Below are positions 4,024-15,465 of a stretch of 24,637 nt of DNA, in pieces (position 1 is the first letter of the stretch; each line of letters begins with the position of its first letter). The position numbers and the translations under genes were made by a program. Below the pieces are notes generated by a model. The model saw nothing but the letters and a program-made list of their open reading frames with translations, ran no database searches and was not told the DNA's origin. The stretch comes from a virus, in the IMG/VR virus record IMGVR_UViG_3300045927_000327, positions 1-24,637 of that record. One strand, given 5' to 3'.

Positions 4024-4043
4024 GAAGCGGTTTCATAACCGGT
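4024..4043. repeat. left terminal inverted repeat of the IS
   Basis: This end is the perfect reverse complement of bases 4927-4946. Read on the minus strand it carries both the transposase stop codon (4035-4033) and the ATG (4036-4034) that opens the truncated downstream frame. The TA at 4022-4023 is the probable target duplication. Confidence 0.93.
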
Positions 4044-4838
4044 TGAGCGTGATGAGGACGCAGGCAACGTGGAGGAAGGCGAGAAACATCTGGGGCGAGC
4101 GATCATGGCGCACCAGGAGACGACGATAGGAGCCCAACCAGGCAATCGTTCGCTCCACGATCCATCGTCGGCGGTAGCGTCGAAGCACGCGCCGGTCTTC
4201 GAATCGGCGGACGCGGCGGTTCTTCCGGTAGGGGCAGATCAGCTGGATCCCGCGCTGGGCGAGGGAGCGCCGGAGTGGATCGCTGTCGTAGCCGCGATCA
4301 GCGATCAAACGCGTGGGCTTCGGTCGAGGGTGTCCGTGGCCTCCAAGGGGAACGGAAATGGTCTTCAGCGTGCTGTGGACGAGCGTCGTTTCCGCCGGTG
4401 AGGCGGAGGCAACTGATACTCCCAGAGGAAGACCCTGGCCGTCGACCACCACCATGCACTTTGAGCCTTTCCCCCTCTTAGTTTTCCCGACTGCGGACCC
4501 CCTTTTTTCGCAGGCATGAACGTGGCATCGATGAAGGACTCTCCCCACTCGAGCCGCCCGCGCTCGTTGAGCTGTCCCAGGAAGGCCCTCCAGATCGCCA
4601 GCCAGGTTCCGTCTTCCTCCCAGCGCGCGAGCCGTCGCCAGCAGGTGGACGGGCTCGGGTACCCCTCGGGTAAGTCTCGCCAGCGCGCTCCCGTCTTCAG
4701 AACCCAGAGAATCCCGTCCAACACCGCCCGATGAGAAATCCACGGTCGGCCACCTTGCCGCCCCCTCTTGGTTCGGGGCAGGAGTGGCTCGATCTTGGCC
4801 CACTGCTTGTCGGTCAACCGTACGCCGCCTCTTGCCAT
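4033..4838 (-). CDS. IS5-family DDE transposase, two frames joined by -1 frameshift
   Basis: The first frame starts at ATG 4838 (MARGGVRLTDKQW) with GGAGG nine bases upstream. It carries the N-terminal DUF4096-like domain (PLLP, GRPW, GILWVLKTGARWRDLP) and the first catalytic Asp in FIDATF. The second frame supplies the rest: GKTKRGKGSK, the second Asp in LIADRGYDSD and the Glu in RRRWIVERTIAWL, ending at 4033. A run of six A followed by five G on the coding strand (plus-strand positions 4508-4498) is a suitable site for -1 slippage. The homologous motif AKKGG...VGKTKRGKG reads across the junction only with that shift. The joined product is about 268 residues, normal for IS427-type elements. 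The stop lies in the terminal repeat. Confidence 0.9.
4498..4508 (-). other. probable programmed frameshift site of the transposase
   Basis: On the coding strand six A residues precede five G residues. A one-base backward slip here moves the ribosome from the first frame (PAKKGG) to the second (KRGSAVGKTKRG) at exactly the point where conserved family sequence changes frame. Confidence 0.7.
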
Positions 4839-4926
4839 GCAGAAATCCCTCCGCATGACAATTAGCAGAGAGAGGCGTCGCGTACAAGGCCCTTCTAAGT
4901 CTCCTTCAGATCCGGACTTGCGACCG

Positions 4927-5050: not shown

Positions 5051-5347
5051 ATGATCCTCGCCTCTCGCGTCCTCTCGGACGGGCGCCAGATCGACGTGGA
5101 CGCGCTGCTCTACGGGCGGGCGCGCCTCTGCGTGGGCACCGACCCGATCAAACACAGCTACGACGACTGCTGGTGATACGAGACGCCCGAAGCTGCGGTC
5201 GCGGCGATGAACGAATGGGATGCGAGCGGCGAGCCGAAGGGTTGGATGAGTCATCTGAGCAGCGGACGGCGGCGACCGATAGTGGACGCCAAGAGGGAGT
5301 ATCCCGAAGTTAACCTAGGCGTAGGTCCTTACGACCTAGCTCTGTGA
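5051..5347 (+). pseudogene. phage hypothetical gene with in-frame TGA
   Basis: From ATG 5051 the frame reads MILASRVLSDGRQIDVDALL, then ARLCVGTDPIKHSYDDCW, followed by TGA at 5174-5176. The same frame continues as YETPEAAVAAMNEWDASGEPKGWM without further stops to 5347. Codon use on both sides of the stop is GC-rich, like phage genes, whereas the last 15 or so codons fall in AT-richer sequence. The pattern (VCVG, DD-W-YETP, WD--GEP-GW, GRRRP) resembles a small phage protein I have an impression of but cannot name. A TGG-to-TGA change between two aromatic residues is the simplest explanation. It is sandwiched between two minus-strand cargo genes, so it is probably a remnant of the original phage backbone. 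Confidence 0.6.
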
Positions 5348-6105
5348 AAACGGATCGTTCTCACGTTCTTGTCATCCTTCGTTGTAACTGAAGCTGACAC
5401 CGAGAATGTGAACTCACCATATGGATCACTTGGCCAGATATCTTCGATGAATGACAATGGCAGATTGGCGTGATGCCCGAGCTTGTCCTTGATTTCGATA
5501 ACGTGGTTGTGGACCTTGACTATAGACCATTTGTCGTCATGGTTATAGGCATTCGGTCGCGAATCACGTGCGCAATCAAGTACTATCTTGTTAGACCAAC
5601 TTGTATGAGGCACAGACATTAGCATAACTGTCGCTCGACGTTCGCGCGAATCCAAAGCAATGTACTCCGAAAGAGTGTAGTACTTTCTCCGATTCAGGTA
5701 TCTATAAGGGAAGGTGTACGCAGGGATATCGCCAATGCTGCGCACACCAAGCAGAACGAGTGATGGAGCAACAGCAATGGCCAGTACCGCCCCATCTTCG
5801 GGAGTTGTGAGTCGCACACTGGTGAATCGCGGGCTAGGCTCTATTCGTTCCAGTGCTGTATCCCTGATTCGCTTTTCCTGATCCGCGGCATCAGGTATTC
5901 CTTGATATGAGGCAACGCGGCCATCAGCATCCTCGGAAATACCGAGGTAGAGGACGCCTCCACGATGATTGCTGAACTGAACTATGTCAGTAGCCAATTC
6001 GTGACGCTGCTTATCGGTCGCTGCGTAGCCGGTTCCCTTTATCTCAAGAACTTCAGACTCCGGTGTTCCTATCCGTGGCAACGTTGATGGAATAGAGAAG
6101 TCCAT
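5329..6105 (-). CDS. Schlafen/AlbA_2-domain protein
   Basis: This is a 258-residue protein. The N-terminal 75 residues carry the AlbA_2 signature: ESEVLEIKG at 17-24, a helix, then IVQFSNHRGGVLYLGISEDADG at 41-62 with the characteristic N-x-x-GG turn. Prokaryotic AlbA_2/Schlafen-core domains are found in putative nucleic-acid-binding, ATP-binding or RNA-cleaving proteins, and several anti-phage genes contain them. The C-terminal part (residues 130-258) is not recognised; it has no winged helix or helicase domain that I can see. Base composition is lower in GC than the phage backbone. It lies 41 bases downstream of the 210-residue gene on the same strand, so they are probably co-transcribed. 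No strong ribosome binding site is visible upstream. Confidence 0.7.
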   Translation of the reverse strand: MDFSIPSTLPRIGTPESEVLEIKGTGYAATDKQRHELATDIVQFSNHRGGVLYLGISEDADGRVASYQGIPDAADQEKRIRDTALERIEPSPRFTSVRLTTPEDGAVLAIAVAPSLVLLGVRSIGDIPAYTFPYRYLNRRKYYTLSEYIALDSRERRATVMLMSVPHTSWSNKIVLDCARDSRPNAYNHDDKWSIVKVHNHVIEIKDKLGHHANLPLSFIEDIWPSDPYGEFTFSVSASVTTKDDKNVRTIRFHRARS

Positions 6106-7602: not shown

Positions 7603-8742
7603 ATGAAGACGACCTCTATCCGCCGGGTCACCCTCAAGGACCTCAAGTACGACCAGCGCAACCCTCGGTCGCACTCCCGGCAGAACCTCCGACACATCGA
7701 GGAGAGCCTGAAACGTTTCGGCCAGGTTGAGCCGCTCGTCGTCCAGAAGGGGACCGGTCGGGTGATCGGCGGGAACGGGCGACTCGCGGTGATGGCGCGG
7801 CTGGGGTGGACCGACTGCAACGTCGTCGAGGTCGAGCTCGACGACCTCCAGGCCAGCGCACTCGCGGTCGCGCTCAACCGGGCCTCAGAGGATGGGGACT
7901 GGGACCTATCCGCCCTGGAGGCGATCCTCTCCGAGCTCGAGGCCAGCCAATCGCTGGAGGGGGTCGGGTTCTCCACGGAGGAGTTCGAGCGCCTGAAGGG
8001 CGAGGTGGAAGCGCTCGCAGGCCCGGCCCCGGAGGAGGCGGCTTCCGAGCCGACTTCCGACCCGCGCACGAAACCGGGTGACCTCTGGGAGCTGGGCGAG
8101 CACCGCCTCCTCTGTGGCGATTCGACGGAACCGGGGGACGTAGACCGCCTCCTGACGATCCCGCCCGCGGCGATCTATTTCGACCCGCCCTTCGAGGAGG
8201 AGTACGACCGCTGGCCGCTCCCGACGGTTCCCGCGCGCGTGATCGCCCTCTTCGGACGTCAGACCTCGCGCATCGTTTTCGGCGCGAAGCTCGCCCGGAG
8301 CTTCCCGGTGCTCCACGAGTTCGTGGTCACGGGCAACGCCCGACAGGGCCAGGGCCTCCTCTGCCAGATGCACGACTCGGTCTGGCTCCTCTGCAAGGGT
8401 GCCATGAACCCGACCGTCGATCCGGTGCCGCTGGTTCGTTCCCGAGTGAAGCTCGCGAGCAACGGCCGACCGCACAGCGTGATCCAGTCGATTGGGGGCG
8501 TGGTGGACCTCTTCCACTCGAAGCCGGTCGAGACCGCGTTGCTCCTGGCCTCGCTGATCGATCAGGGGGAAATCATCTACGATCCCTGCTGCGGGAGCGG
8601 GACCACGATCGTCGCCGGCGAGCAGTCGCGGCGTCGCGTCTTCGCGATGGAGTCGGACCCGGCCCGGTGCGACGGGATCGTTCGTCGCTGGGAGCAGGCC
8701 GCCCGGAAAACGGCGTCCCTGGAGGCGCGCGCCGATGGCTGA
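7603..8742 (+). CDS. ParB-domain DNA methyltransferase fusion
   Basis: This is a 379-residue protein. Residues 5-110 form a ParB/Srx-like nuclease-fold domain: NPRSHSRQNLRHIEESLKRFGQVEPLVV, then VIGGNGRLAVMARLGW, the equivalent of the ParB GxHR box. Residues 160-370 form a methyltransferase: GDLWELGEHRLLCGDS, the catalytic DPPF at 194-197 and the SAM-binding DPCCGSGTT at 327-335. This two-domain arrangement is frequent in phages. The protein presumably binds DNA through the ParB part and methylates adenine or cytosine (DPPF favours N6-adenine), protecting phage DNA or marking packaging sites. It is the first gene after the promoter and overlaps the next gene by eight bases. Confidence 0.9.
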   Translation: MKTTSIRRVTLKDLKYDQRNPRSHSRQNLRHIEESLKRFGQVEPLVVQKGTGRVIGGNGRLAVMARLGWTDCNVVEVELDDLQASALAVALNRASEDGDWDLSALEAILSELEASQSLEGVGFSTEEFERLKGEVEALAGPAPEEAASEPTSDPRTKPGDLWELGEHRLLCGDSTEPGDVDRLLTIPPAAIYFDPPFEEEYDRWPLPTVPARVIALFGRQTSRIVFGAKLARSFPVLHEFVVTGNARQGQGLLCQMHDSVWLLCKGAMNPTVDPVPLVRSRVKLASNGRPHSVIQSIGGVVDLFHSKPVETALLLASLIDQGEIIYDPCCGSGTTIVAGEQSRRRVFAMESDPARCDGIVRRWEQAARKTASLEARADG

Positions 8743-9505
8743 GGAGACGCGGATCGCTTGGACCGACGCCACGCTGAACCCGTGGATGGGGTGCGAGAAG
8801 GTCTCGGCTGGGTGCGCCAACTGCTACGCCGAGACGCTTACGACGAACCGCATGGGCCTCTCGGTCTGGGGCCGAAACGGACGGCGCCAGAGGACCTCTC
8901 CCCAGAACTGGAAGAAGCCCTTGAAGTGGAACCGCGACGCGGAGCGCGCGGGCCATTCTCTCCGCGTCTTCTGCGCCTCGCTCTGCGACGTGTTCGAGGA
9001 TCATCCCCAGGCCAACGCCTGGCGCCCGGACCTCTGGGACCTGATCCGCCGCACGCCGAATCTCGATTGGCAGCTCCTGACGAAACGGCCCGAGCGGATC
9101 GAGGACAACCTGCCTCCCGACTGGGGTGCGGGCTGGCCGCACGTCTGGCTGGGCACGTCGATCGAGGACGAGCGCGTCATCGCGCGAGCGGATCATCTCC
9201 GGAGCATTCCGGCTGTGGTGCACTTCGTCAGCTACGAACCCGCGTTGGGCCCGCTCGCGCATGCGCTGGACCTCTCTGGGCTGCAGTGGGTGATCTACGG
9301 GGGTGAGTCGGGCCCGGGCTTCCGCGCCGAGGACAAGCAGTGGGCGCGCGACATCCGCTCCGCGTGCGCGCTCGCCGACGTGGCCTTCTTCCACAAGCAG
9401 AGCGCGGCGATTCGGACCGAGATGGGAATAGAGCTCGATGGCGAGATCGCACGGGCGTGGCCTCTGGACCGCAGGAAGCTCGCACCGGCCGGGGTGCTGG
9501 TCTGA
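8735..9505 (+). CDS. Gp37/Gp68 family protein (DUF5131)
   Basis: This 256-residue protein opens with IAWTDATLNPWMGCEKVSAGCANCYAE. Its C-x6-C-x2-C pattern (C20, C27, C30), the later LLTKRPERI, WLGTSIEDERV, FVSYEPALGPL and VIYGGESGP, and the order of these blocks are the hallmarks of the phage Gp37/Gp68 family. The cysteine arrangement and barrel-like motifs resemble radical-SAM or SPL-type enzymes, so an Fe-S cluster is plausible; the reaction is unknown. The start overlaps the end of the ParB-methyltransferase gene and the next gene follows after one base, so the three are one transcription unit. The family call is strong. Confidence 0.88.
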   Translation: MAEETRIAWTDATLNPWMGCEKVSAGCANCYAETLTTNRMGLSVWGRNGRRQRTSPQNWKKPLKWNRDAERAGHSLRVFCASLCDVFEDHPQANAWRPDLWDLIRRTPNLDWQLLTKRPERIEDNLPPDWGAGWPHVWLGTSIEDERVIARADHLRSIPAVVHFVSYEPALGPLAHALDLSGLQWVIYGGESGPGFRAEDKQWARDIRSACALADVAFFHKQSAAIRTEMGIELDGEIARAWPLDRRKLAPAGVLV

Positions 9506-9506
9506 G

Positions 9507-9926
9507 ATGGCGGTCATCTACCACTTTGGCTACCGAGGCCGGGCTCTGTCGGAGGTGACGGTGGCTTTGTGGGCGCTCCGAAACGGAATCCTCGTCGATG
9601 TCCGCATGCAGCCGCACACCCGCCAGTGGGGGAAGGAGGAGCTCGTCCGTACGCTCGGCAGCCTCTATGTGCACGTCCCGGAACTCGGGAACGTGAATTA
9701 CCGCGGCGGTCCGATCCAGCTCCTGGACCCAGGAGTCGGAGTCGCGCGCGTACTCAGCATGATGGATTCCCAAGAGGTGGTCCTCATGTGCGCGTGCGAG
9801 GACTACGATCGGTGCCATCGGAAGGTGGTGGTGCAGGAGTTGGTGGCCGCCGCGCCCTTCTTGATCGAGCCACGGGCCCTCTTTCCTGCCCAGCGGAAAG
9901 CACAGCCGGAGCTACCATTCAGGTAG
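9507..9926 (+). CDS. DUF488 family protein
   Basis: This 139-residue protein begins at ATG 9507, one base after the previous stop; longer starts would run back into that gene. The N-terminus (IYHFGYRGR) and the motif LMCACEDYDRCHRKVV, with C95, C97, C103, H104 and R105, match DUF488, a family of unknown function often found beside DNA-modification genes. The conserved cysteine-histidine pair suggests a redox or nucleotide-modifying enzyme. Coupling with Gp37/Gp68 hints that the two act together. The family is clear, the function is not. Confidence 0.78.
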   Translation: MAVIYHFGYRGRALSEVTVALWALRNGILVDVRMQPHTRQWGKEELVRTLGSLYVHVPELGNVNYRGGPIQLLDPGVGVARVLSMMDSQEVVLMCACEDYDRCHRKVVVQELVAAAPFLIEPRALFPAQRKAQPELPFR

Positions 9927-9936
9927 GTCAAACCCC

Positions 9937-10470
9937 GTGGGCCAGTCCCGCCGGATTCCCTGGCACGAGCTCCAGCTCCGTTACGTCACCGACCCCATGG
10001 TGACGCAGCGAGGACTCGCCCGGGAGTACCGGAAGCTGGGCTTCCGCATCCACGCACGCGACGTCTGGAAGCGGGCACAGCGGGAGAAATGGGACGCGGC
10101 GCGGCAGGCCGGGATCGACGAGGCGGCGAAGGCGGCGCGGGCCCGGCTCACCGACGAGCTGGTCACGCTCGCCAAGCAGGAGGTCCTTGAGCAGCTCAAG
10201 GCCCTCCGCTCGGCCCGGAAGCGCCTGATGAAGAAGGTCGAGCAGGCCACCGAGCCCGGCGCCGAGCCGCAGCGCTTCGAGGACAGCGTCGAGTCGATCG
10301 AACGCCGGGCGGACGGCAAGGTGATCCGCTCGACCGTGCGACGCCGCGGCGTACCTGCCGATAGCCCCTTGACCGGTCAGGTCCTGAGGCTCCAGCAGGA
10401 GCTGATCCGGGATGTGCTGAAGCTCACGGGTGCCGAAACCGAGGCGGAAGTGGAGATCACGATCGACTGA
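9937..10470 (+). CDS. putative terminase small subunit
   Basis: This 177-residue protein starts at GTG 9937 with an AGGTAGG-like site upstream. The first 60 residues look like a helix-turn-helix DNA-binding domain (WHELQLRYVTDPMVTQRGLAREY...RDVWKRAQREKW), as in small terminase subunits that insert into or scan DNA. A long charged helical stretch (residues 60-110) would serve oligomerisation. The C-terminus has VLRLQQELIRDVLKLTGAE, similar to the end of other phage small terminases. Position ahead of the large terminase supports the call, although about 2.5 kb of cargo lies between them. Recognition of cos/pac sites is the family role; similarity is only by pattern. Confidence 0.55.
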   Translation: MGQSRRIPWHELQLRYVTDPMVTQRGLAREYRKLGFRIHARDVWKRAQREKWDAARQAGIDEAAKAARARLTDELVTLAKQEVLEQLKALRSARKRLMKKVEQATEPGAEPQRFEDSVESIERRADGKVIRSTVRRRGVPADSPLTGQVLRLQQELIRDVLKLTGAETEAEVEITID

Positions 10471-10474
10471 CCTC

Positions 10475-10502
10475 TTGACACCTTCCGGGTTGTCAATACC
10501 CT
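10475..10502 (+). promoter_or_regulatory. possible promoter with operator
   Basis: A consensus TTGACA (10475-10480) is followed after 16 bases by TACCCT (10497-10502), which keeps the three most conserved -10 positions. The -35 box also forms an inverted repeat with TGTCAA (10491-10496), ten bases apart, which could be a repressor site. It would drive the genes from 10695 onward. Confidence 0.4.
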
Positions 10503-10694
10503 CCGAAGTTACAGAGCTGGGCTACACGATCTGGAGCACCTGCGGCCCCGGCTCGCGATCGGTGGTGCTCGCCCGATCGCACACAGCATGAGGCGGCGTG
10601 CCCCCCACTCCCGGGGGGCGCTGGAGCGGCTCGCAAGAGCCCCTCGTCCTGCCGGTCCGATGCGGAACCGGCCCCACCTACGGATCGCGCCGCC
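10503..10694. other. intergenic leader with a GC hairpin
   Basis: No convincing gene lies here. A perfect seven-base stem, GCCCCCC (10600-10606) with GGGGGGC (10613-10619), has a six-base loop and no following T-run, so it is not a classic terminator. A short arginine-rich frame from ATG 10588 overlaps the signal sequence of the next gene and is not accepted. Confidence 0.4.
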
Positions 10695-11807
10695 ATGCGC
10701 CACACCCCTCTCCTGTTCACCCTCCTCTTCCTCGTGGGCCTCCTCCATGGGGCTCCTCGACTAGGCGAGCACCCGCCGGTCCTCGTCGTCCTGAACCCAC
10801 GTCACTTCCCGGAGCCCGCCCGCGCGGTCGCGCTAGACGCCGAGACCATGCAGCTCCAGGACCTCCCCATCCCGATCACGCCCTATCCGGCGATTTGGGC
10901 CCTGCCCGGGAGCCGAGTGGCCTTCGCGAACGGGGTGCCGCACCGATTCTCCGTCCGCGTCCTCGAGGACCTCCTCCCGGGAGGCGGTGGCTCGGGCGGT
11001 GATCCTATCCTCGAGGTGGAAGCCCCCGACTCGGGGCTCGGGTTCCTCCCCGTGGCGGACGGCTGCGGCTGGCTGGACGGGATCGGCCTCGTGCTCACGA
11101 CCGCGTTTCAGGATCAGGCAGGGAAGCACGGGCGGGTGACCGTCTGGGACGGGCAGTCGCCGACCGCGCCCGTCCACCTCCTCGAAGGCATCCTGCCCGG
11201 GGCGGTCGCGCGCGCCGGCCATCTGATCGCGTTCCTGGACCTGGAACTCGAGCCCGTGGGCGGAGTGCTCGCGCTCCTCGACCCCGCGACCGGGGCCTGG
11301 TGGCGCAGCGACGGCGATGGCGCCGCGCTCGGCTGGGGACGCTGCCTCGCCTCGGTCCAGACGCCGCAGGGCCCGGAGGTCTGGATCGGGGCCGGGAAGG
11401 TGGGCCCCCGCTACGGCCCGCCCGCGCAGCGGTATCGGGTCATCCCGGGCGGGCTCGAGTACGCGGGGCAGGTGGCCGACGAGGTCTGCCCGCCAGAGCC
11501 TCAGGCCATTCGCCGGCGCGAGGGCCATTTCCCGGTCTACGTCCGGGCCCTCAACGAGCTCGTGGCCTACAGCCCGATCGATGGGGTGGCGCTCGGGCGG
11601 ATCGGCCTCGGCTTGCCCTGCAATGAGTGGTACTGGGGCCCCTTCGACCTTGCCTGGGATCCCCGGTCCTGGACGTGGCTCGCGCCCGCCGCGCGCGCGA
11701 CGGAAGCGGGTCCCTGGTACCTCGCGCGCGTGAACGAGGACCTCTCGGCCGTGACGCTCGCGACCGTTCCCTGGCGGATGGGGCTCCTGACCTTGGTCGG
11801 TCCTTGA
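10695..11807 (+). CDS. putative exported protein, beta-propeller-like
   Basis: This 370-residue protein begins with a convincing signal peptide, MRHTPLLFTLLFLVGLLHGA, with a likely cut after HGA. The mature part has few charged helices and many short strand-turn repeats with D/G-rich loops (for example PVADGCGWLDGIGLVLT, PEVWIGAGKVGPRY, PFDLAWDPRSWTWLAP). This suggests a beta-propeller, but I cannot assign a family. Composition and codon use match the phage genes. A secreted protein between small and large terminase is atypical of a head module, so it is probably a moron that alters the host envelope or surroundings. No Shine-Dalgarno is evident before the ATG. Confidence 0.6.
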   Translation: MRHTPLLFTLLFLVGLLHGAPRLGEHPPVLVVLNPRHFPEPARAVALDAETMQLQDLPIPITPYPAIWALPGSRVAFANGVPHRFSVRVLEDLLPGGGGSGGDPILEVEAPDSGLGFLPVADGCGWLDGIGLVLTTAFQDQAGKHGRVTVWDGQSPTAPVHLLEGILPGAVARAGHLIAFLDLELEPVGGVLALLDPATGAWWRSDGDGAALGWGRCLASVQTPQGPEVWIGAGKVGPRYGPPAQRYRVIPGGLEYAGQVADEVCPPEPQAIRRREGHFPVYVRALNELVAYSPIDGVALGRIGLGLPCNEWYWGPFDLAWDPRSWTWLAPAARATEAGPWYLARVNEDLSAVTLATVPWRMGLLTLVGP

Positions 11808-11901
11808 GGACATGCCCCATGCTTGGCGAGCCCCGCTCTCCCGCGCGTCAGTGCGGCGCCGCCGGTCCCCTCGGCCCTCGGACGAGGACACGGAGGGACC
11901 G

Positions 11902-12090
11902 TTGCGGCTCCTGATCGACGGGCGGCCAATCGGCGCGACCGAGGTTGCCGAAATCGTCGCGGCGCTGCGTGCGCTGCTCAGCCGTTGCGATCCAGAGTGG
12001 CCTGAGACCCGGCGGGCGCAGGCCGCCCTTCGCGGCATGGGCGGCGGGCCAGACAGTGGACCCAGGACCGTCCTCAAGGGCGGTCGGTGA
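11902..12090 (+). CDS. small hypothetical protein, 62 aa
   Basis: The TTG at 11902 has GGAGG five bases upstream and gives LRLLIDGRPIGATEVAEIVAALRAL, a normal strand-helix start. The alternative ATG at 11812 adds 30 arginine- and serine-rich residues that look like a non-coding extension and has poorly spaced GAGG. I do not recognise the family. It lies between the exported protein and the YjzC-like gene and is probably co-transcribed with them. Confidence 0.5.
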   Translation: MRLLIDGRPIGATEVAEIVAALRALLSRCDPEWPETRRAQAALRGMGGGPDSGPRTVLKGGR

Positions 12091-12102
12091 CCTGGAGGTG
12101 AG

Positions 12103-12573
12103 ATGAGATTCAACGAGAGCGGACTCAAGGCGGCGGTGCTGCAGGCAATTGCGTGGACATGCGGCGCGGGGTTCGAGGGCGTCGCGAACGTGCTCGCCTG
12201 CAAGCTCCTCGCGGGCGACGCGCCTACGCCGGAGACGGTCGCGCACTGCTTCGAGGCCCAGCACCAGCCCTATGACCGCGGCGGCGTCCGCGCGATCGCG
12301 CGCGCCTGTCAGATCGCGGTCCTGGCGGCCGAGCTGCCCGAGCCGGTGCTCCTCAAGAAAGACAGCCCGCCGCCGCAGGCCACGCCTCCCGCACAGCTCT
12401 TCAAGCCGGGCGAGACATGTCCGGTCTCGGGCCAATACGAGCTCGTGGACGAGACCGGCCAGGGCACCGAGATCGAGCGCACGGTGACCGCGGGCGAGCC
12501 GTTCCCGCCCACCGAGGAGGCCGGTTGGACCTTCCGCCTCATCGATATCACTCAACACCGGAACCCGGTGTGA
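12103..12573 (+). CDS. protein with C-terminal YjzC-like domain
   Basis: This 156-residue protein has a strong ribosome binding site (GGAGGTGAG) directly before the ATG. Residues 1-80 are helical and unrecognised, with cysteines at 20, 33, 49 and 69. Residues 98-147 read FKPGETCPVSGQYELV, ERTVTAGEPFPPT and GWTFRLID, the pattern of YjzC-like small domains found alone in bacteria and phages, whose function is unknown. A proline-rich linker separates the two parts. The next gene begins shortly after the stop. The domain call is moderately sure. Confidence 0.6.
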   Translation: MRFNESGLKAAVLQAIAWTCGAGFEGVANVLACKLLAGDAPTPETVAHCFEAQHQPYDRGGVRAIARACQIAVLAAELPEPVLLKKDSPPPQATPPAQLFKPGETCPVSGQYELVDETGQGTEIERTVTAGEPFPPTEEAGWTFRLIDITQHRNPV

Positions 12574-12593
12574 AACCCTTGGAGGAATCGCTC

Positions 12594-12998
12594 GTGAAGA
12601 AGCTCCGCTGGACGTTCTCGCTCGTCCTGATCTGCCTCCTCGCCTGCGGTCTCGGGACCGGTTGCGCCAGCCTTCTCGGTGGTGCTCGGGAGGCCGCGGC
12701 CCCGGCCGATCCCAACCGGCCGGTGTCGATCGAGAACCCCTCCCCGCTCCTGCAGACGGCCCTGGAGCTGAAGGCCGCCGCCGAAGCTCTGAAACAGGCT
12801 CAGAAGGAGAAGACCCCGGAATCCCAGACCGGCGCGACCGTCGCGATCGCGGGCGCCGCCACGTCCCTCATCGGACTGATCGGGATGTTCTTCAAGCAGC
12901 GCGCCACCGACGCCAAGGTGGCCGAGGTCAAGGCCGAGACGAACGAGCTCTACGACAAGACCCACGCTGCCGTTCCGATCGCTGCGAAGGCGGCCTGA
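12594..12998 (+). CDS. putative lipoprotein
   Basis: The GTG at 12594 is preceded by GGAGG with eight-base spacing. It opens a lipoprotein signal peptide, KKLRWTFSLVLICLLACGLGTGC, with possible lipobox cysteines at 18 (LLAC) and 24. A second hydrophobic segment lies at residues 81-100 (ATVAIAGAATSLIGLIGMFF), followed by a charged helix. An earlier in-frame GTG at 12570 lacks a ribosome binding site. Total length is 134 residues. Two membrane-directed segments would fit an envelope-lysis or superinfection-exclusion role, but no family is recognised. It directly precedes the large terminase gene, five bases away. Confidence 0.6.
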   Translation: MKKLRWTFSLVLICLLACGLGTGCASLLGGAREAAAPADPNRPVSIENPSPLLQTALELKAAAEALKQAQKEKTPESQTGATVAIAGAATSLIGLIGMFFKQRATDAKVAEVKAETNELYDKTHAAVPIAAKAA

Positions 12999-13003
12999 GC
13001 GGC

Positions 13004-15112
13004 GTGAAGCTCCGGATCCCGGCGCTCTATCGTGATGCGGTGCCCCGAAACTGGGGCACCGCCCGCCGGATCGCCGTCTCCCATCCCGCTCTCGATTGCC
13101 GGGCCCTCGAGGTCTTGCTCGCCTTCGCCCTCTTCGCCGTCGCGGGCGAGGCCGCGGTCATCACGGCCACGCCCGGACGCGCGGTGCTCCTCGCCGAGCA
13201 GTGGGCGCACCCCAAGACGCGCCGGGTCGAGGGCGTGACGAGACTCCGGCTCCGGACGAGGACGGTCTGGATCGCAGAGACGCCGGCGGCCATCCCATCC
13301 CGCTCGATCGAGCACCTCTTCGTCGATGGGGCGCAGGCTTTGGGCCGAGATCCAGCCCACGAGGTGGTCGGGAGCTTCGCGGGGACCTGCCTCTGCGCCG
13401 GCCAGCGAGCGCGTGGGCATTGGTTCGACGGCTTCTGCGCTGGCGCGGATCGGCTGGTCACCCTGGAGCCGGCCGCCGTGGCCGCGGCCTTCCCAGACCA
13501 GGCGCAGCGAATCGGCAAGCGGGATGTCCCCTTCGTAACCTTCGCGCGCCGGCGCTTGAAGGTCCGCTCCGACAAGCGGGACGAGTTCCTGGGGCCGGAG
13601 CAGATCGCCGAGGCGAGGGATCAGCTCGGCACTGGCTGGGCTTCGGGCCGGATGGGCACCCCGGTCCTGAGCTTCCACCTGACGCCGATGCAGAAGCGCT
13701 ATCTCGCGATCAAGCGGATGGCGATACGGAAGGGGTTCAACAAGTTCCTGCTCCTCAAGTACCGCCGCGGCGGGTTCACGACGCTCGAGCAGGCGCTCTC
13801 GTACCGGATGGTCGCGACGCGGCCGGCGTGCCACGTCACCACCCTTGCGCACACCGACGACAACACCCGCCGCATCTTCCGGATCGCGTCCCTCTTCCAC
13901 GCCCGAGATTCCGAGGCGCCGCGCGCCATCACCGACTCGCGCACCGCACTCGAGCTCGAGAACGGGTCCTACTTCTTCATCGGAACCGCCGGCGGGAAGG
14001 GTTCCTCCCGCGGCGACACGCTGCAGCGGGTTCACGGGTCGGAATGCGCGCGCTGGTGCAAGACCAACCACGAGCAGGTCCGCGTCGAGGACCTCATCGC
14101 AGGCCTCGTGGGCGCCGCCAGCCACGGGGAGATCGTCCTCGAGACGACCCCGAACGGGCGCGAGTGGTTCTGCCAGACCTACACCGAGGCGAAGCAGGGC
14201 CAGAACGACTGGTACCCGATCTTCCTTCCGTGGTTCCGCGACCCGGGGAATGTCGCGCGCCCTGGCACGTACTCTGAGGAGGAGATCCGGGACACCCTCA
14301 CCGAGGAGGAGCGGAACCTCAAGCTCTCCATCCCCCAGATCGCCTTCCGCCGCGCGATCCGGAAGGCCTACAAGAAGCTCACCCCGCAGGAGTACCCCGA
14401 GGACGACGTGAGCTGCTTCCTCACGTCCGGGGTCTGCTACTTCGACACGGAGCGACTCCTCTGGCTGGTCGCGAAACTCCCGGAGTACGAGCGGAAGCAC
14501 CTCCCCGGCGGCTACGAGGTCGTCTGGGAGGAGCCCAAGGCCGGCCTCGAGTACTGCGCGGGCTGCGACACCTCGGAGGGGATTCCAGGCTGTGACCCCA
14601 ACGGGGTCGGCGTCGTCCGGCGGGACAACGGCGCACAGGTGGCCGCCGTGCACGGGCTCTTCAACCCGCGCACTCTGGCTGAGCACGCCATCCGGCTCAG
14701 TAAGCGCTACAACGAGGCGCTGCTGGGGATCGAACGCCAGAACCACGGGCACGCGGTTCTCCAGAAGGTGGAGGAGTTGGGCTACGCGCGGCCGCACTTC
14801 CGCGGCGGGCCGCTCTTCTATTGCCACGAGGGCGCGGACCTCCGCAGCTCCCGGCCCGGCTGGGACACGAGCGCCATCACGCGCCCGCAGCTCCTCGACA
14901 CCCTCTCGGACATGCTCGACGCGGACACGTCCTGGGTCCGCGATCGTGACTTCGTGGACGAGTGCCTGACCTTCCGGAAGCAGACGACCGGAGATTTCGA
15001 GGCGGACCCGGGTTCGCACGACGATCGGGTGATCCTTTGGGGGATCGCGCAGCAGATGCGAAAGCAGCGACGGCACCGTGGGCGCCTCACCATCTTGCCC
15101 GGGGAGCTCTGA
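13004..15112 (+). CDS. terL: terminase large subunit
   Basis: The 702-residue frame begins at GTG 13004, just after the lipoprotein stop. The ATPase lies at about residues 225-400: FHLTPMQKRYLAIKRM, a Walker A variant KYRRGGFTT (252-260), a Walker B-like QRVHGSECA with E347, and the coupling motif ETTPNG (380-385). The RNase-H-like nuclease has D522 (GCDTSEG), E577 (LLGIERQNHG) and D673/D674 (SHDDRV). The enzyme cuts concatemers and pumps DNA into proheads. The first 220 residues precede the usual start and show no motif I know, yet GC-rich third positions show they are coding; they may be a fused accessory domain. The gene ends in an overlap with the next ATG. Confidence 0.9.
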   Translation: MKLRIPALYRDAVPRNWGTARRIAVSHPALDCRALEVLLAFALFAVAGEAAVITATPGRAVLLAEQWAHPKTRRVEGVTRLRLRTRTVWIAETPAAIPSRSIEHLFVDGAQALGRDPAHEVVGSFAGTCLCAGQRARGHWFDGFCAGADRLVTLEPAAVAAAFPDQAQRIGKRDVPFVTFARRRLKVRSDKRDEFLGPEQIAEARDQLGTGWASGRMGTPVLSFHLTPMQKRYLAIKRMAIRKGFNKFLLLKYRRGGFTTLEQALSYRMVATRPACHVTTLAHTDDNTRRIFRIASLFHARDSEAPRAITDSRTALELENGSYFFIGTAGGKGSSRGDTLQRVHGSECARWCKTNHEQVRVEDLIAGLVGAASHGEIVLETTPNGREWFCQTYTEAKQGQNDWYPIFLPWFRDPGNVARPGTYSEEEIRDTLTEEERNLKLSIPQIAFRRAIRKAYKKLTPQEYPEDDVSCFLTSGVCYFDTERLLWLVAKLPEYERKHLPGGYEVVWEEPKAGLEYCAGCDTSEGIPGCDPNGVGVVRRDNGAQVAAVHGLFNPRTLAEHAIRLSKRYNEALLGIERQNHGHAVLQKVEELGYARPHFRGGPLFYCHEGADLRSSRPGWDTSAITRPQLLDTLSDMLDADTSWVRDRDFVDECLTFRKQTTGDFEADPGSHDDRVILWGIAQQMRKQRRHRGRLTILPGEL

Positions 15113-15465
15113 TGCTGCCCACTGCCCAGACCGACCTCACCCCCTGGATGCAGCTCGGGGCCATGGGGCTCCTGGGAGCATTGCTCCTGGTCGTGGGTCC
15201 AAAGCTCCTGGACCGGATGTTCCTCGCGCATCGGAAGGCGCTCGAGGACGTCATGACAGCCAACCGTGCGGCGAACCTGGAGGTCGTCTCCGAGCTCAAG
15301 TGCATCTCCGGGGAGCTCCGGAATGTCTGGGAGCGCCTGAACACCAACAACAACGCGGTCACGCGGATCGCCGTTGCCCTGGTGAGCCGTCACCCGGAGC
15401 TCGCACGCGAGATCCAGAAGGCGCTCGACCCCCAAGACCAGAAGTCAGAGGTCATCAAGCCGTGA
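15112..15465 (+). CDS. small membrane protein, holin-like
   Basis: The ATG overlaps the terminase stop by one base. The 117-residue protein has one transmembrane helix (about residues 13-30, MQLGAMGLLGALLLVVG), then a long charged helical cytoplasmic part ending in a lysine-rich tail. One membrane helix with a coiled tail resembles some holins and phage superinfection proteins, but a structural role cannot be excluded. No family assigned. Confidence 0.55.
   Translation: MLPTAQTDLTPWMQLGAMGLLGALLLVVGPKLLDRMFLAHRKALEDVMTANRAANLEVVSELKCISGELRNVWERLNTNNNAVTRIAVALVSRHPELAREIQKALDPQDQKSEVIKP

What the first reader, a model, noticed from the sequence alone, without database searches (positions are those of the whole stretch)
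10695..12998. Exported and lipoprotein cargo between small and large terminase genes
A signal-peptide protein of beta-propeller appearance, a small protein, a YjzC-like protein and a lipoprotein lie where terminase genes are normally adjacent. They may alter the host envelope, for example by superinfection exclusion or lysis.
Basis: partly seen in the sequence, partly recalled or inferred. Interest (0 to 1): 0.5.

Follow-up and report, generated by a model that had tools for sequence, protein, structure and literature searches.

The report
Secreted phage proteins beside terminase gene
An unnamed phage carries genes for a probably secreted protein and a probable membrane lipoprotein between its two DNA-packaging genes, and some distant relatives keep fast-changing envelope genes at the same spot, which suggests tools for altering or breaking open the host's outer layers.

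Summary
The block is real. Between a TerS-like gene (9937-10470) and a well-supported TerL gene (13004-15112) lie a 370-aa exported protein, a YjzC-domain protein and a probable lipoprotein with a downstream hydrophobic segment. The 92-aa 'small protein' is not supported by codon use.

In relatives with about 41-51% TerL identity, L003 keeps TerS - exported 359 aa - small ORF - YjzC - TerL, and L011 keeps TerS - exported 389 aa - TerL. The window and L003 exported proteins are mutual best matches; the window and L011 proteins share a PQQ-propeller-type motif. Predicted lipoproteins are enriched near TerL (12 of 189 genes against 1 of 187 further away).

Best reading: a late-gene envelope/lysis cassette. 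The lipoprotein has unimolecular-spanin-like topology but a non-consensus lipobox; the exported protein is a periplasmic accessory, most plausibly for exclusion or envelope alteration. No function is shown, and no endolysin of five families was found over cut-off in 14-15 related virus records.

Side finding: this TerL group carries an apparent degenerate second ATPase domain.

The parts
9937..10470 (+). TerS-like gene, 177 aa
   Evidence: Similar to genes upstream of TerL in L003 (E 2e-4) and L011 (E 1e-4); the L011 gene has a weak PHROG terminase-small-subunit match, E 0.0027; codon score +63.5
10471..10694 (+). 224-bp gap between TerS and the exported gene, with several inverted repeats (TTGACA-N10-TGTCAA at 10475-10496, GCGATCGG/CCGATCGC, GCCCCCC/GGGGGGC)
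   Evidence: no sigma-70 promoter or + strand terminator pattern found; fold little better than shuffles, z -1.49, 21 of 200 shuffles at least as stable
10695..11807 (+). 370-aa exported protein, possible PQQ-type beta-propeller
   Evidence: N-terminal signal-type segment; codon score +76.8; mutual best match with the L003 exported protein; motif LLDPATGAWW shared only with the L011 counterpart among 1614 proteins (pattern written after seeing both); no family hit itself
11812..12090 (+). 92-aa ORF, doubtful gene
   Evidence: Codon score -7.3; the shorter TTG-11903 version is worse, -26.2; only a chance-level Pfam match, E 0.23, and none in PHROGs
12103..12573 (+). 156-aa protein with C-terminal YjzC-like domain (about residues 98-153)
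   Evidence: PF14168 E 1.7e-4, below cut-off; phrog_3202 E 5.6e-4; 56% identity over 55 aa to L003_6689
12594..12998 (+). Probable lipoprotein, 134 aa (alternative start 12570, 142 aa), with a hydrophobic segment at about residues 82-100 and a charged tail; candidate unimolecular spanin
   Evidence: Codon score +40.8, relaxed lipobox at C24, hydropathy 1.93; no meaningful family match and no phage-record match
13004..15112 (+). Large terminase, 702 aa: N-terminal ~170 aa region resembling a degenerate ATPase domain, then ATPase, then nuclease
   Evidence: PHROG terminase hits; AlphaFold pLDDT 86.7, pTM 0.60; T4 gp17 Z 23.5 over residues 172-691
15112..15465 (+). 117-aa protein with one N-terminal hydrophobic segment and a polar tail (holin/BhlA-like by eye), overlapping the TerL stop
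   Evidence: Similar to the L011 gene at the same place (Smith-Waterman 47 against shuffled 25.9, 0 of 500 shuffles as high); no meaningful family match and no phage-record match

Best explanation
This is the window phage's version of a variable late-gene envelope cassette that sits around the large-terminase gene in an uncultivated tailed-phage group. Inferred mechanism: the genes are transcribed with the packaging and head genes late in infection. The 370-aa protein is exported to the periplasm, folds as a PQQ-type beta-propeller and binds a host envelope component. That would keep further phages out or alter the envelope for the phage's benefit. The 134-aa lipoprotein is anchored by its N-terminal lipid, with its second hydrophobic segment in the inner membrane. 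Together with the N-terminal-TM protein encoded just after TerL, it would belong to the lysis or outer-membrane-disruption equipment, working like a unimolecular spanin. The YjzC-domain protein is a passenger of unknown role shared with L003. Shown: gene positions, export-type N terminus, shared order in two relatives, rapid divergence, and enrichment of predicted lipoproteins near TerL. Inferred: fold, targets, timing and function.
For: Order TerS - exported - small ORF - YjzC - TerL is shared with L003, and TerS - exported - TerL with L011. The window and L003 exported proteins are mutual best matches: rank 1 of 321 and 1 of 323 proteins of 250-500 aa, 2 of 1000 shuffles as high. The PQQ-type motif occurs only in the window and L011 exported proteins, 2 of 1614 (pattern written after seeing both). 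L011's protein has weak PQQ_2/BamB matches, E 0.0024 and 0.016, both under cut-off. Predicted lipoproteins: 12 of 189 genes within 3.5 kb of TerL against 1 of 187 further away in 22 long-TerL loci without the window, p 0.0016; with the strict lipobox 7 of 189 against 1 of 187, p 0.035 (uncorrected). In 4 of 5 long records the only flagged lipoprotein among the called genes lies beside TerL. One lipoprotein family lies downstream of TerL in L011 and L091 but upstream in L012. The window's TM protein after TerL matches L011's (0 of 500 shuffles).
Against: The window's lipobox is non-consensus. Its lipoprotein shows no convincing similarity to 10 relatives' lipoproteins (lowest 15 of 500 shuffles as high, for L095), and its TM protein matches only one of five tested relatives clearly. 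No endolysin of five Pfam families was found over cut-off in the virus records searched (14 for PF00959, 15 for the other four, the window not among them): four families gave nothing, PF08291 one sub-cut-off hit in a frame with a stop. The L011 exported protein is not similar to the window's by alignment (286 of 1000 shuffles as high), L003's lacks the PQQ motif, and in a search against all proteins the L003 match is only E 2.5. The L003 exported gene barely passes my codon-score limit (6.2, limit 6). The exported gene's codon use is ordinary in the window (8th lowest of 21), though lowest in both relatives. The single-sequence AlphaFold model of the 370-aa protein is unusable (pLDDT 37). Strand propensity of the 370-aa protein is only moderately high (47th of 329).
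Confidence: 0.4

Rival explanations
1. Superinfection-exclusion block: both the exported protein and the lipoprotein coat or block host receptors in the outer membrane or periplasm, like the lipoprotein exclusion factors Cor, Llp and Ltp (names recalled; Ltp also seen in the listing). Neither has a lysis role.
For: Rapid divergence of the exported protein (29% over 138 aa against about 51% for TerL between window and L003). Lowest codon adaptation among 17 and 14 genes in two relatives, as for acquired genes. One relative's lipoprotein (L101) has a weak Cor match, E 0.11, beside weak spanin matches, E 0.048 and 0.11.
Against: TM genes that look like holins by eye lie near lipoproteins in several relatives. 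The window's lipoprotein has a second hydrophobic segment that exclusion lipoproteins would not need. No integrase appeared among the 20 window proteins scanned with Pfam, so lysogeny, where exclusion is commonest, is not indicated; the record is a fragment.
Confidence: 0.27
2. Virion proteins: the 370-aa protein and its neighbours are structural or ejected parts of the particle and merely look exported.
For: The block lies in the packaging/head gene cluster. Some relatives have a beta-helix-looking protein upstream of TerL (L009_1370; by eye only).
Against: Cleavable signal-type N terminus, clearest in L003 (VTPAFAQ), and lipobox-type N termini are not expected of proteins assembled in the cytoplasm. 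Codon use of the exported gene in L003 and L011 is far from that of the structural genes, though not in the window.
Confidence: 0.13
3. Ordinary passenger genes: a mixed accessory patch of unrelated genes with no common envelope purpose, kept by chance near TerL.
For: The interval also holds a YjzC-domain protein and, in L003, ten other called genes of which only two show a hydrophobic segment.
Against: Presence of exported or lipoprotein genes beside TerL in many lineages and their enrichment there. Order shared between window and L003.
Confidence: 0.2

Closest known systems
Unimolecular spanins (type phage T1 gp11; Kongari et al. 2018, PMC6139136, outline, abstract and found passages read)
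   Same: N-terminal lipid-attachment-type signal, one further hydrophobic segment, no cysteine after the lipid cysteine, small size, late-gene setting
   Different: Lipobox non-consensus; about 34 residues follow the membrane segment; no endolysin seen next to it; no sequence similarity found; function untested
Phage moron / accessory genes (definition recalled)
   Same: Extra genes between otherwise conserved genes, content differs between relatives, atypical codon use in two relatives
   Different: No own promoter or terminator found by simple patterns; an exported gene is kept at this site in three lineages; codon use in the window itself is ordinary
BamB / PQQ-type periplasmic beta-propellers (PF13360, TIGR03300)
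   Same: Exported, about 370 aa, LDPATGxxxW-type motif; weak profile matches for the L011 counterpart
   Different: The window protein has no profile match; no lipobox, whereas BamB is a lipoprotein (recalled); no evidence for binding the BAM complex
T4 gp17-type large terminases
   Same: ATPase plus nuclease, Z 23.5 to gp17
   Different: Extra N-terminal ~170 aa whose predicted strands and helices follow the ATPase domain's order without a Walker A motif

Membership tests
Unimolecular spanin | N-terminal lipoylation signal with lipobox | tested here: inconclusive
   Signal-type N terminus with C24; fits a relaxed but not the strict lipobox
Unimolecular spanin | C-terminal transmembrane domain | tested here: inconclusive
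   Hydrophobic segment from residue 82 of 134, mean hydropathy 1.93, but with about a 34-residue tail; no TM predictor was run
Unimolecular spanin | No periplasmic cysteine after the lipid cysteine (none of 58 u-spanins has one, PMC6139136) | tested here: met
   Sequence of window 12594-12998 read directly
Unimolecular spanin | Encoded with holin and endolysin; complements outer-membrane disruption | tested here: inconclusive
   TM genes that look like holins by eye near TerL in relatives; five endolysin families gave no hit over cut-off in 14-15 virus records, the PF05838 search being uninformative because its controls did not ring; function not testable here
Moron (accessory gene between conserved phage genes) | Present between conserved genes, absent or replaced in relatives | tested here: met
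   Gene content around TerL differs among 27 relatives whose gene lists were read; 16 of these 27 appear in the 18-row portal-match list
Moron (accessory gene between conserved phage genes) | Own promoter and terminator | tested here: inconclusive
   No sigma-70-like promoter and no + strand terminator pattern in 9900-13100; other promoter types are not covered
PQQ-type beta-propeller (PF13360/BamB) | Profile match above curated cut-off | tested here: not met
   Window protein: no family; L011 counterpart 18.0 against 27.6 bits
PQQ-type beta-propeller (PF13360/BamB) | Propeller fold | tested here: inconclusive
   AlphaFold model pLDDT 37, so no fold search was made on it
YjzC (PF14168) | Score over the gathering cut-off of 25 bits | tested here: not met
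   Window 22.3 bits; the L003 counterpart passes at 31.2
Large terminase (TerL) | ATPase motifs plus RNase H-like nuclease fold | tested here: met
   Walker A KYRRGGFTT, Walker B HGSE, motif C TTPNG, motif names recalled; fold matches to T4 gp17 and to terminase nuclease domains

The most novel reading that the evidence does not exclude
A phage group secretes a fast-evolving PQQ/BamB-like propeller, encoded inside its terminase operon, that intercepts the host's outer-membrane assembly or receptor proteins during infection. It is coupled to a TerL-linked lipoprotein/TM lysis cassette without a recognised endolysin family, and so is a new kind of envelope-takeover module.
Probability: 0.1. Interest if true: 0.7.

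Novelty: new variant of a known kind. Interest (0 to 1): 0.42.

Why it matters
If right, the terminase neighbourhood of a whole uncultivated phage group can be read as an envelope-modification and lysis site. That gives a way to find holins, spanins and exclusion proteins that sequence searches miss. The exported protein would be a concrete candidate for a phage factor acting in the host periplasm; tblastn found no match to it in 50,697 phage records.

Tried and rejected
Single-sequence AlphaFold of the 370-aa protein: pLDDT 37, discarded, not searched against fold libraries. Pattern scans of viral contigs with the window, L003 and L011 exported proteins found nothing, or only the query's own contig. 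tblastn of the exported protein, YjzC protein, lipoprotein and TM protein against 50,697 phage records: no match; the L003 and L011 exported proteins likewise. PDB sequence searches gave nothing for the window protein, a weak quinohemoprotein hit (E 0.11) for L011's and a nanobody (E 0.66) for L003's. Promoter/terminator scan and RNA fold of the TerS-370 gap: nothing clear. Profile-profile test of the TerL N-terminal region against its own ATPase domain by hhalign: score 14.1 against a mean of 12.4 and maximum of 18.5 for 100 column shuffles, and 13.9 for the reversed profile, so not significant by sequence. Pfam scan of that N-terminal region from the window and eight relatives: no terminase match. 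The fold searches covered mainly TerL residues 172-691, so the N-terminal region's fold was barely tested. Lambda-type two-component spanin was considered: the TM protein after TerL has positive charge after its hydrophobic segment, which suits a C-inside holin topology more than an i-spanin (read by eye). Moron in the strict sense (own promoter) not shown.

Rows dropped before counts: loci of contigs fetched again with longer flanks (L001, L003, L010-L017, L022; also L155 and L156) were removed from the counts; near-identical contigs from different samples remain (for example L009 and L027). Many loci are short contigs without full flanks. The 141-locus and 22-locus counts exclude the window; one search includes it (17 of 791 against 2 of 670). 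Three lipobox patterns were used: relaxed, wider and strict. The codon comparison used only genes over 400 bp. The gene caller is my own and may miss genes.
Full report
What the window is. The window is a whole IMG/VR record of 24,637 bases, probably a fragment. Genes run mostly on the + strand, from a ParB-methyltransferase (7603) through DUF5131 and DUF488 proteins to a TerS-like gene, the block in question, TerL, portal, protease-like, capsid and connector genes.

The observation. The 370-aa ORF is a real gene by codon use; the other five frames score negative. It has no match in Pfam, PHROGs, NCBIfam, PDB sequences or 50,697 phage records. The 92-aa ORF is doubtful (score -7.3). The YjzC protein and the lipoprotein score as genes (+37.6, +40.8). 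The lipoprotein's best start is GTG 12594, and its lipid cysteine would be C24 in LGTGC, which fails the strict lipobox.

TerS and TerL. TerL is certain: PHROG terminase matches, and an AlphaFold model with mean pLDDT 86.7 and pTM 0.60 that matches T4 gp17 at Z 23.5 with high rmsd (17.1) over two domains, and separate terminase ATPase and nuclease domains at Z about 20-22 with rmsd 2.0-3.5. TerS is inferred: weak similarity to genes upstream of TerL in L003 (E 2e-4) and L011 (E 1e-4), and a weak terminase-small-subunit match for L011's (E 0.0027).

Relatives. One direct scan gave L001. Alignment-based TerL scans gave 80 loci each from viral contigs (overlapping) and 2 from genomes, a Robiginitomaculum MAG and a Planctomycetota MAG. 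Many also have homologous portal, protease and capsid genes. In L003, TerS and TerL are 4.6 kb apart with 11 called genes between them. These include an exported 359-aa protein (signal VKTLRALVLLFAAVTPAFAQ), then a 90-aa ORF, then a YjzC protein. In L011 only one called gene lies between TerS and TerL: an exported 389-aa protein. The window's order therefore recurs in part.

Are the exported proteins related? Window against L003: Smith-Waterman 72, against 57 for the next of 321 proteins of 250-500 aa, mutual best, 2 of 1000 shuffles as high; blastp 29% over 138 aa, pairwise E 0.007. In searches against everything the match drowns: E 2.5 by blastp over all called proteins, and not among the 22 best rows shown by phmmer over all ORFs. 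The case rests on position plus the pairwise signal. Window against L011: no alignment signal (286 of 1000 shuffles). However, both carry a PQQ-repeat-like motif, LLDPATGAWW and AVDAATGATLW, found in no other of 1614 proteins by a pattern that I wrote after seeing both; L003's lacks it. L011's protein has weak PQQ_2 and BamB matches (E 0.0024, 0.016, under cut-off). Strand propensity is moderately high: ranks 34 (L003), 47 (window) and 75 (L011) of 329. I read all three as secreted propellers, at modest confidence for the window protein.

Foreign composition. Codon adaptation to each phage's own late genes, among genes over 400 bp: the exported gene is the lowest of 17 in L003's locus and the lowest of 14 in L011's, whose lipoprotein is second lowest. 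In the window it is 8th of 21, unremarkable, and the lipoprotein 5th. This fits recent acquisition in the relatives but not in the window. L003's exported gene also scores low as a gene (6.2, 22), so its reality rests on its signal peptide and similarity.

Lipoproteins and TM proteins. With a relaxed lipobox, 12 of 189 genes within 3.5 kb of TerL are predicted lipoproteins (in 11 loci by the list), against 1 of 187 further away, in 22 long-TerL loci (p 0.0016). With the strict lipobox it is 7 against 1 (p 0.035). In four of five long records (G002, G003, G005, G009) the one flagged lipoprotein among the called genes lies beside TerL; G001 has none flagged, but has a cluster at 51.5-53.6 kb with TM proteins and a lipoprotein-like gene. 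Lipoproteins of L011, L091 and L012 are related to one another (L011 against the other two 0 of 300 shuffles each, L091 against L012 1 of 300), yet lie downstream of TerL in two and upstream in one, so the module moves around TerL. The window's lipoprotein is not clearly related to any of ten tested. The window's TM protein after TerL is related to L011's (0 of 500), but not clearly to four others tested. The layout of lipobox-type start, spacer, hydrophobic segment and charged tail is also seen in L090 and L086. It is the layout required of unimolecular spanins, none of which in the published set of 58 has a periplasmic cysteine (PMC6139136, passages read); nor has this one.

What speaks against lysis. 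Phage lysozyme, Amidase_2, M15_4, M15_3 and GH108 were searched in 14 virus records (PF00959) or 15 (the others); the window itself was not among them. In these only one sub-cut-off M15_3 hit, in a frame with a stop, appeared; the hits over cut-off were in the bacterial genome behind L082. The GH108 control rang nowhere, so that search is uninformative. Other endolysin families were not tried; one protein of L011's record (L167 11324-11890) looks like an NlpC/P60 peptidase by eye. Matches of the TM proteins and lipoproteins to spanin PHROGs are at E 0.02 to 0.35 and of L014's TM protein to a holin family at E 0.012, under cut-off: not significant.

Verdict. This is a real, variable envelope-gene neighbourhood of the terminase, with an exported gene at the same site in three lineages. 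The mechanism is inferred. I give 0.4 to the combined reading of a lysis-type lipoprotein/TM cassette plus a periplasmic propeller accessory. The listings of four library searches showed no title on this arrangement; apart from passages of PMC6139136 I saw listings only, and the library holds open-access papers only.

Side result on TerL. In the model, residues 22-153 follow the order of strands and helices of the ATPase domain 247-407, with one extra strand. The Walker A position reads HAALDCR in many members, and the motif C position GHWF where the active domain has TTPNGREWF. Five shorter relatives in the alignment (L014, L017, L083, L022, L029) lack this part. Sequence profile comparison did not reach significance, and the fold searches hardly covered this part. 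I call it a probable degenerate second ATPase domain, to be checked by superposition. The listings of two paper searches showed nothing on it.

Noticed in passing
window 13004-13540 (TerL residues 1-180) and the same region in L001, L003-L009, L011-L013, L015, L082, L085-L087, L090, L091, L096, L101, L106: N-terminal ~170-aa extension of TerL whose predicted strands and helices follow the order of the ATPase domain but without a Walker A motif: a probable degenerate second ATPase domain, absent from five shorter relatives; not significant by sequence profile.
   Followed up: partly
L027 7992-11258: TerL of 1088 aa with a ~350-aa in-frame insertion starting at a conserved Cys and ending in His-Asn before Cys (intein-like by appearance), absent from the 92-95% identical L009 TerL.
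   Followed up: partly
window 4033-4887 (- strand): DDE transposase gene (PF01609) inside the phage record.
   Followed up: no
window 5329-6105 (- strand): Schlafen/AlbA_2 domain protein (PF04326, E 1.1e-9), near the transposase.
   Followed up: no
window 7603-9926: ParB-N/DNA methyltransferase fusion followed by DUF5131 and DUF488 proteins just before TerS; DUF5131 and ParB-methyltransferase relatives occur in some related loci.
   Followed up: no
L007 866-1630, L009 4028-4792, L027 5973-6737: 254-aa exported-looking protein upstream of TerL that looks by eye like an outer-membrane beta-barrel; L007's copy has no match in PHROGs, Pfam or NCBIfam.
   Followed up: partly
L163 11631-15633 (record G001 49.6-53.6 kb): Cluster of TM proteins that look like holins by eye, a lipoprotein-like gene and a 525-aa exported-looking protein after the tail genes in L003's record, possibly the same cassette at another site.
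   Followed up: partly
L167 11324-11890 (record G002): 188-aa protein that looks by eye like an NlpC/P60 peptidase among the tail genes of L011's record; possible endolysin or tail hydrolase, not tested.
   Followed up: no
L012 10910-12139: 409-aa protein between TerL and portal that resembles a sulfatase/phosphatase by eye; no Pfam match.
   Followed up: partly
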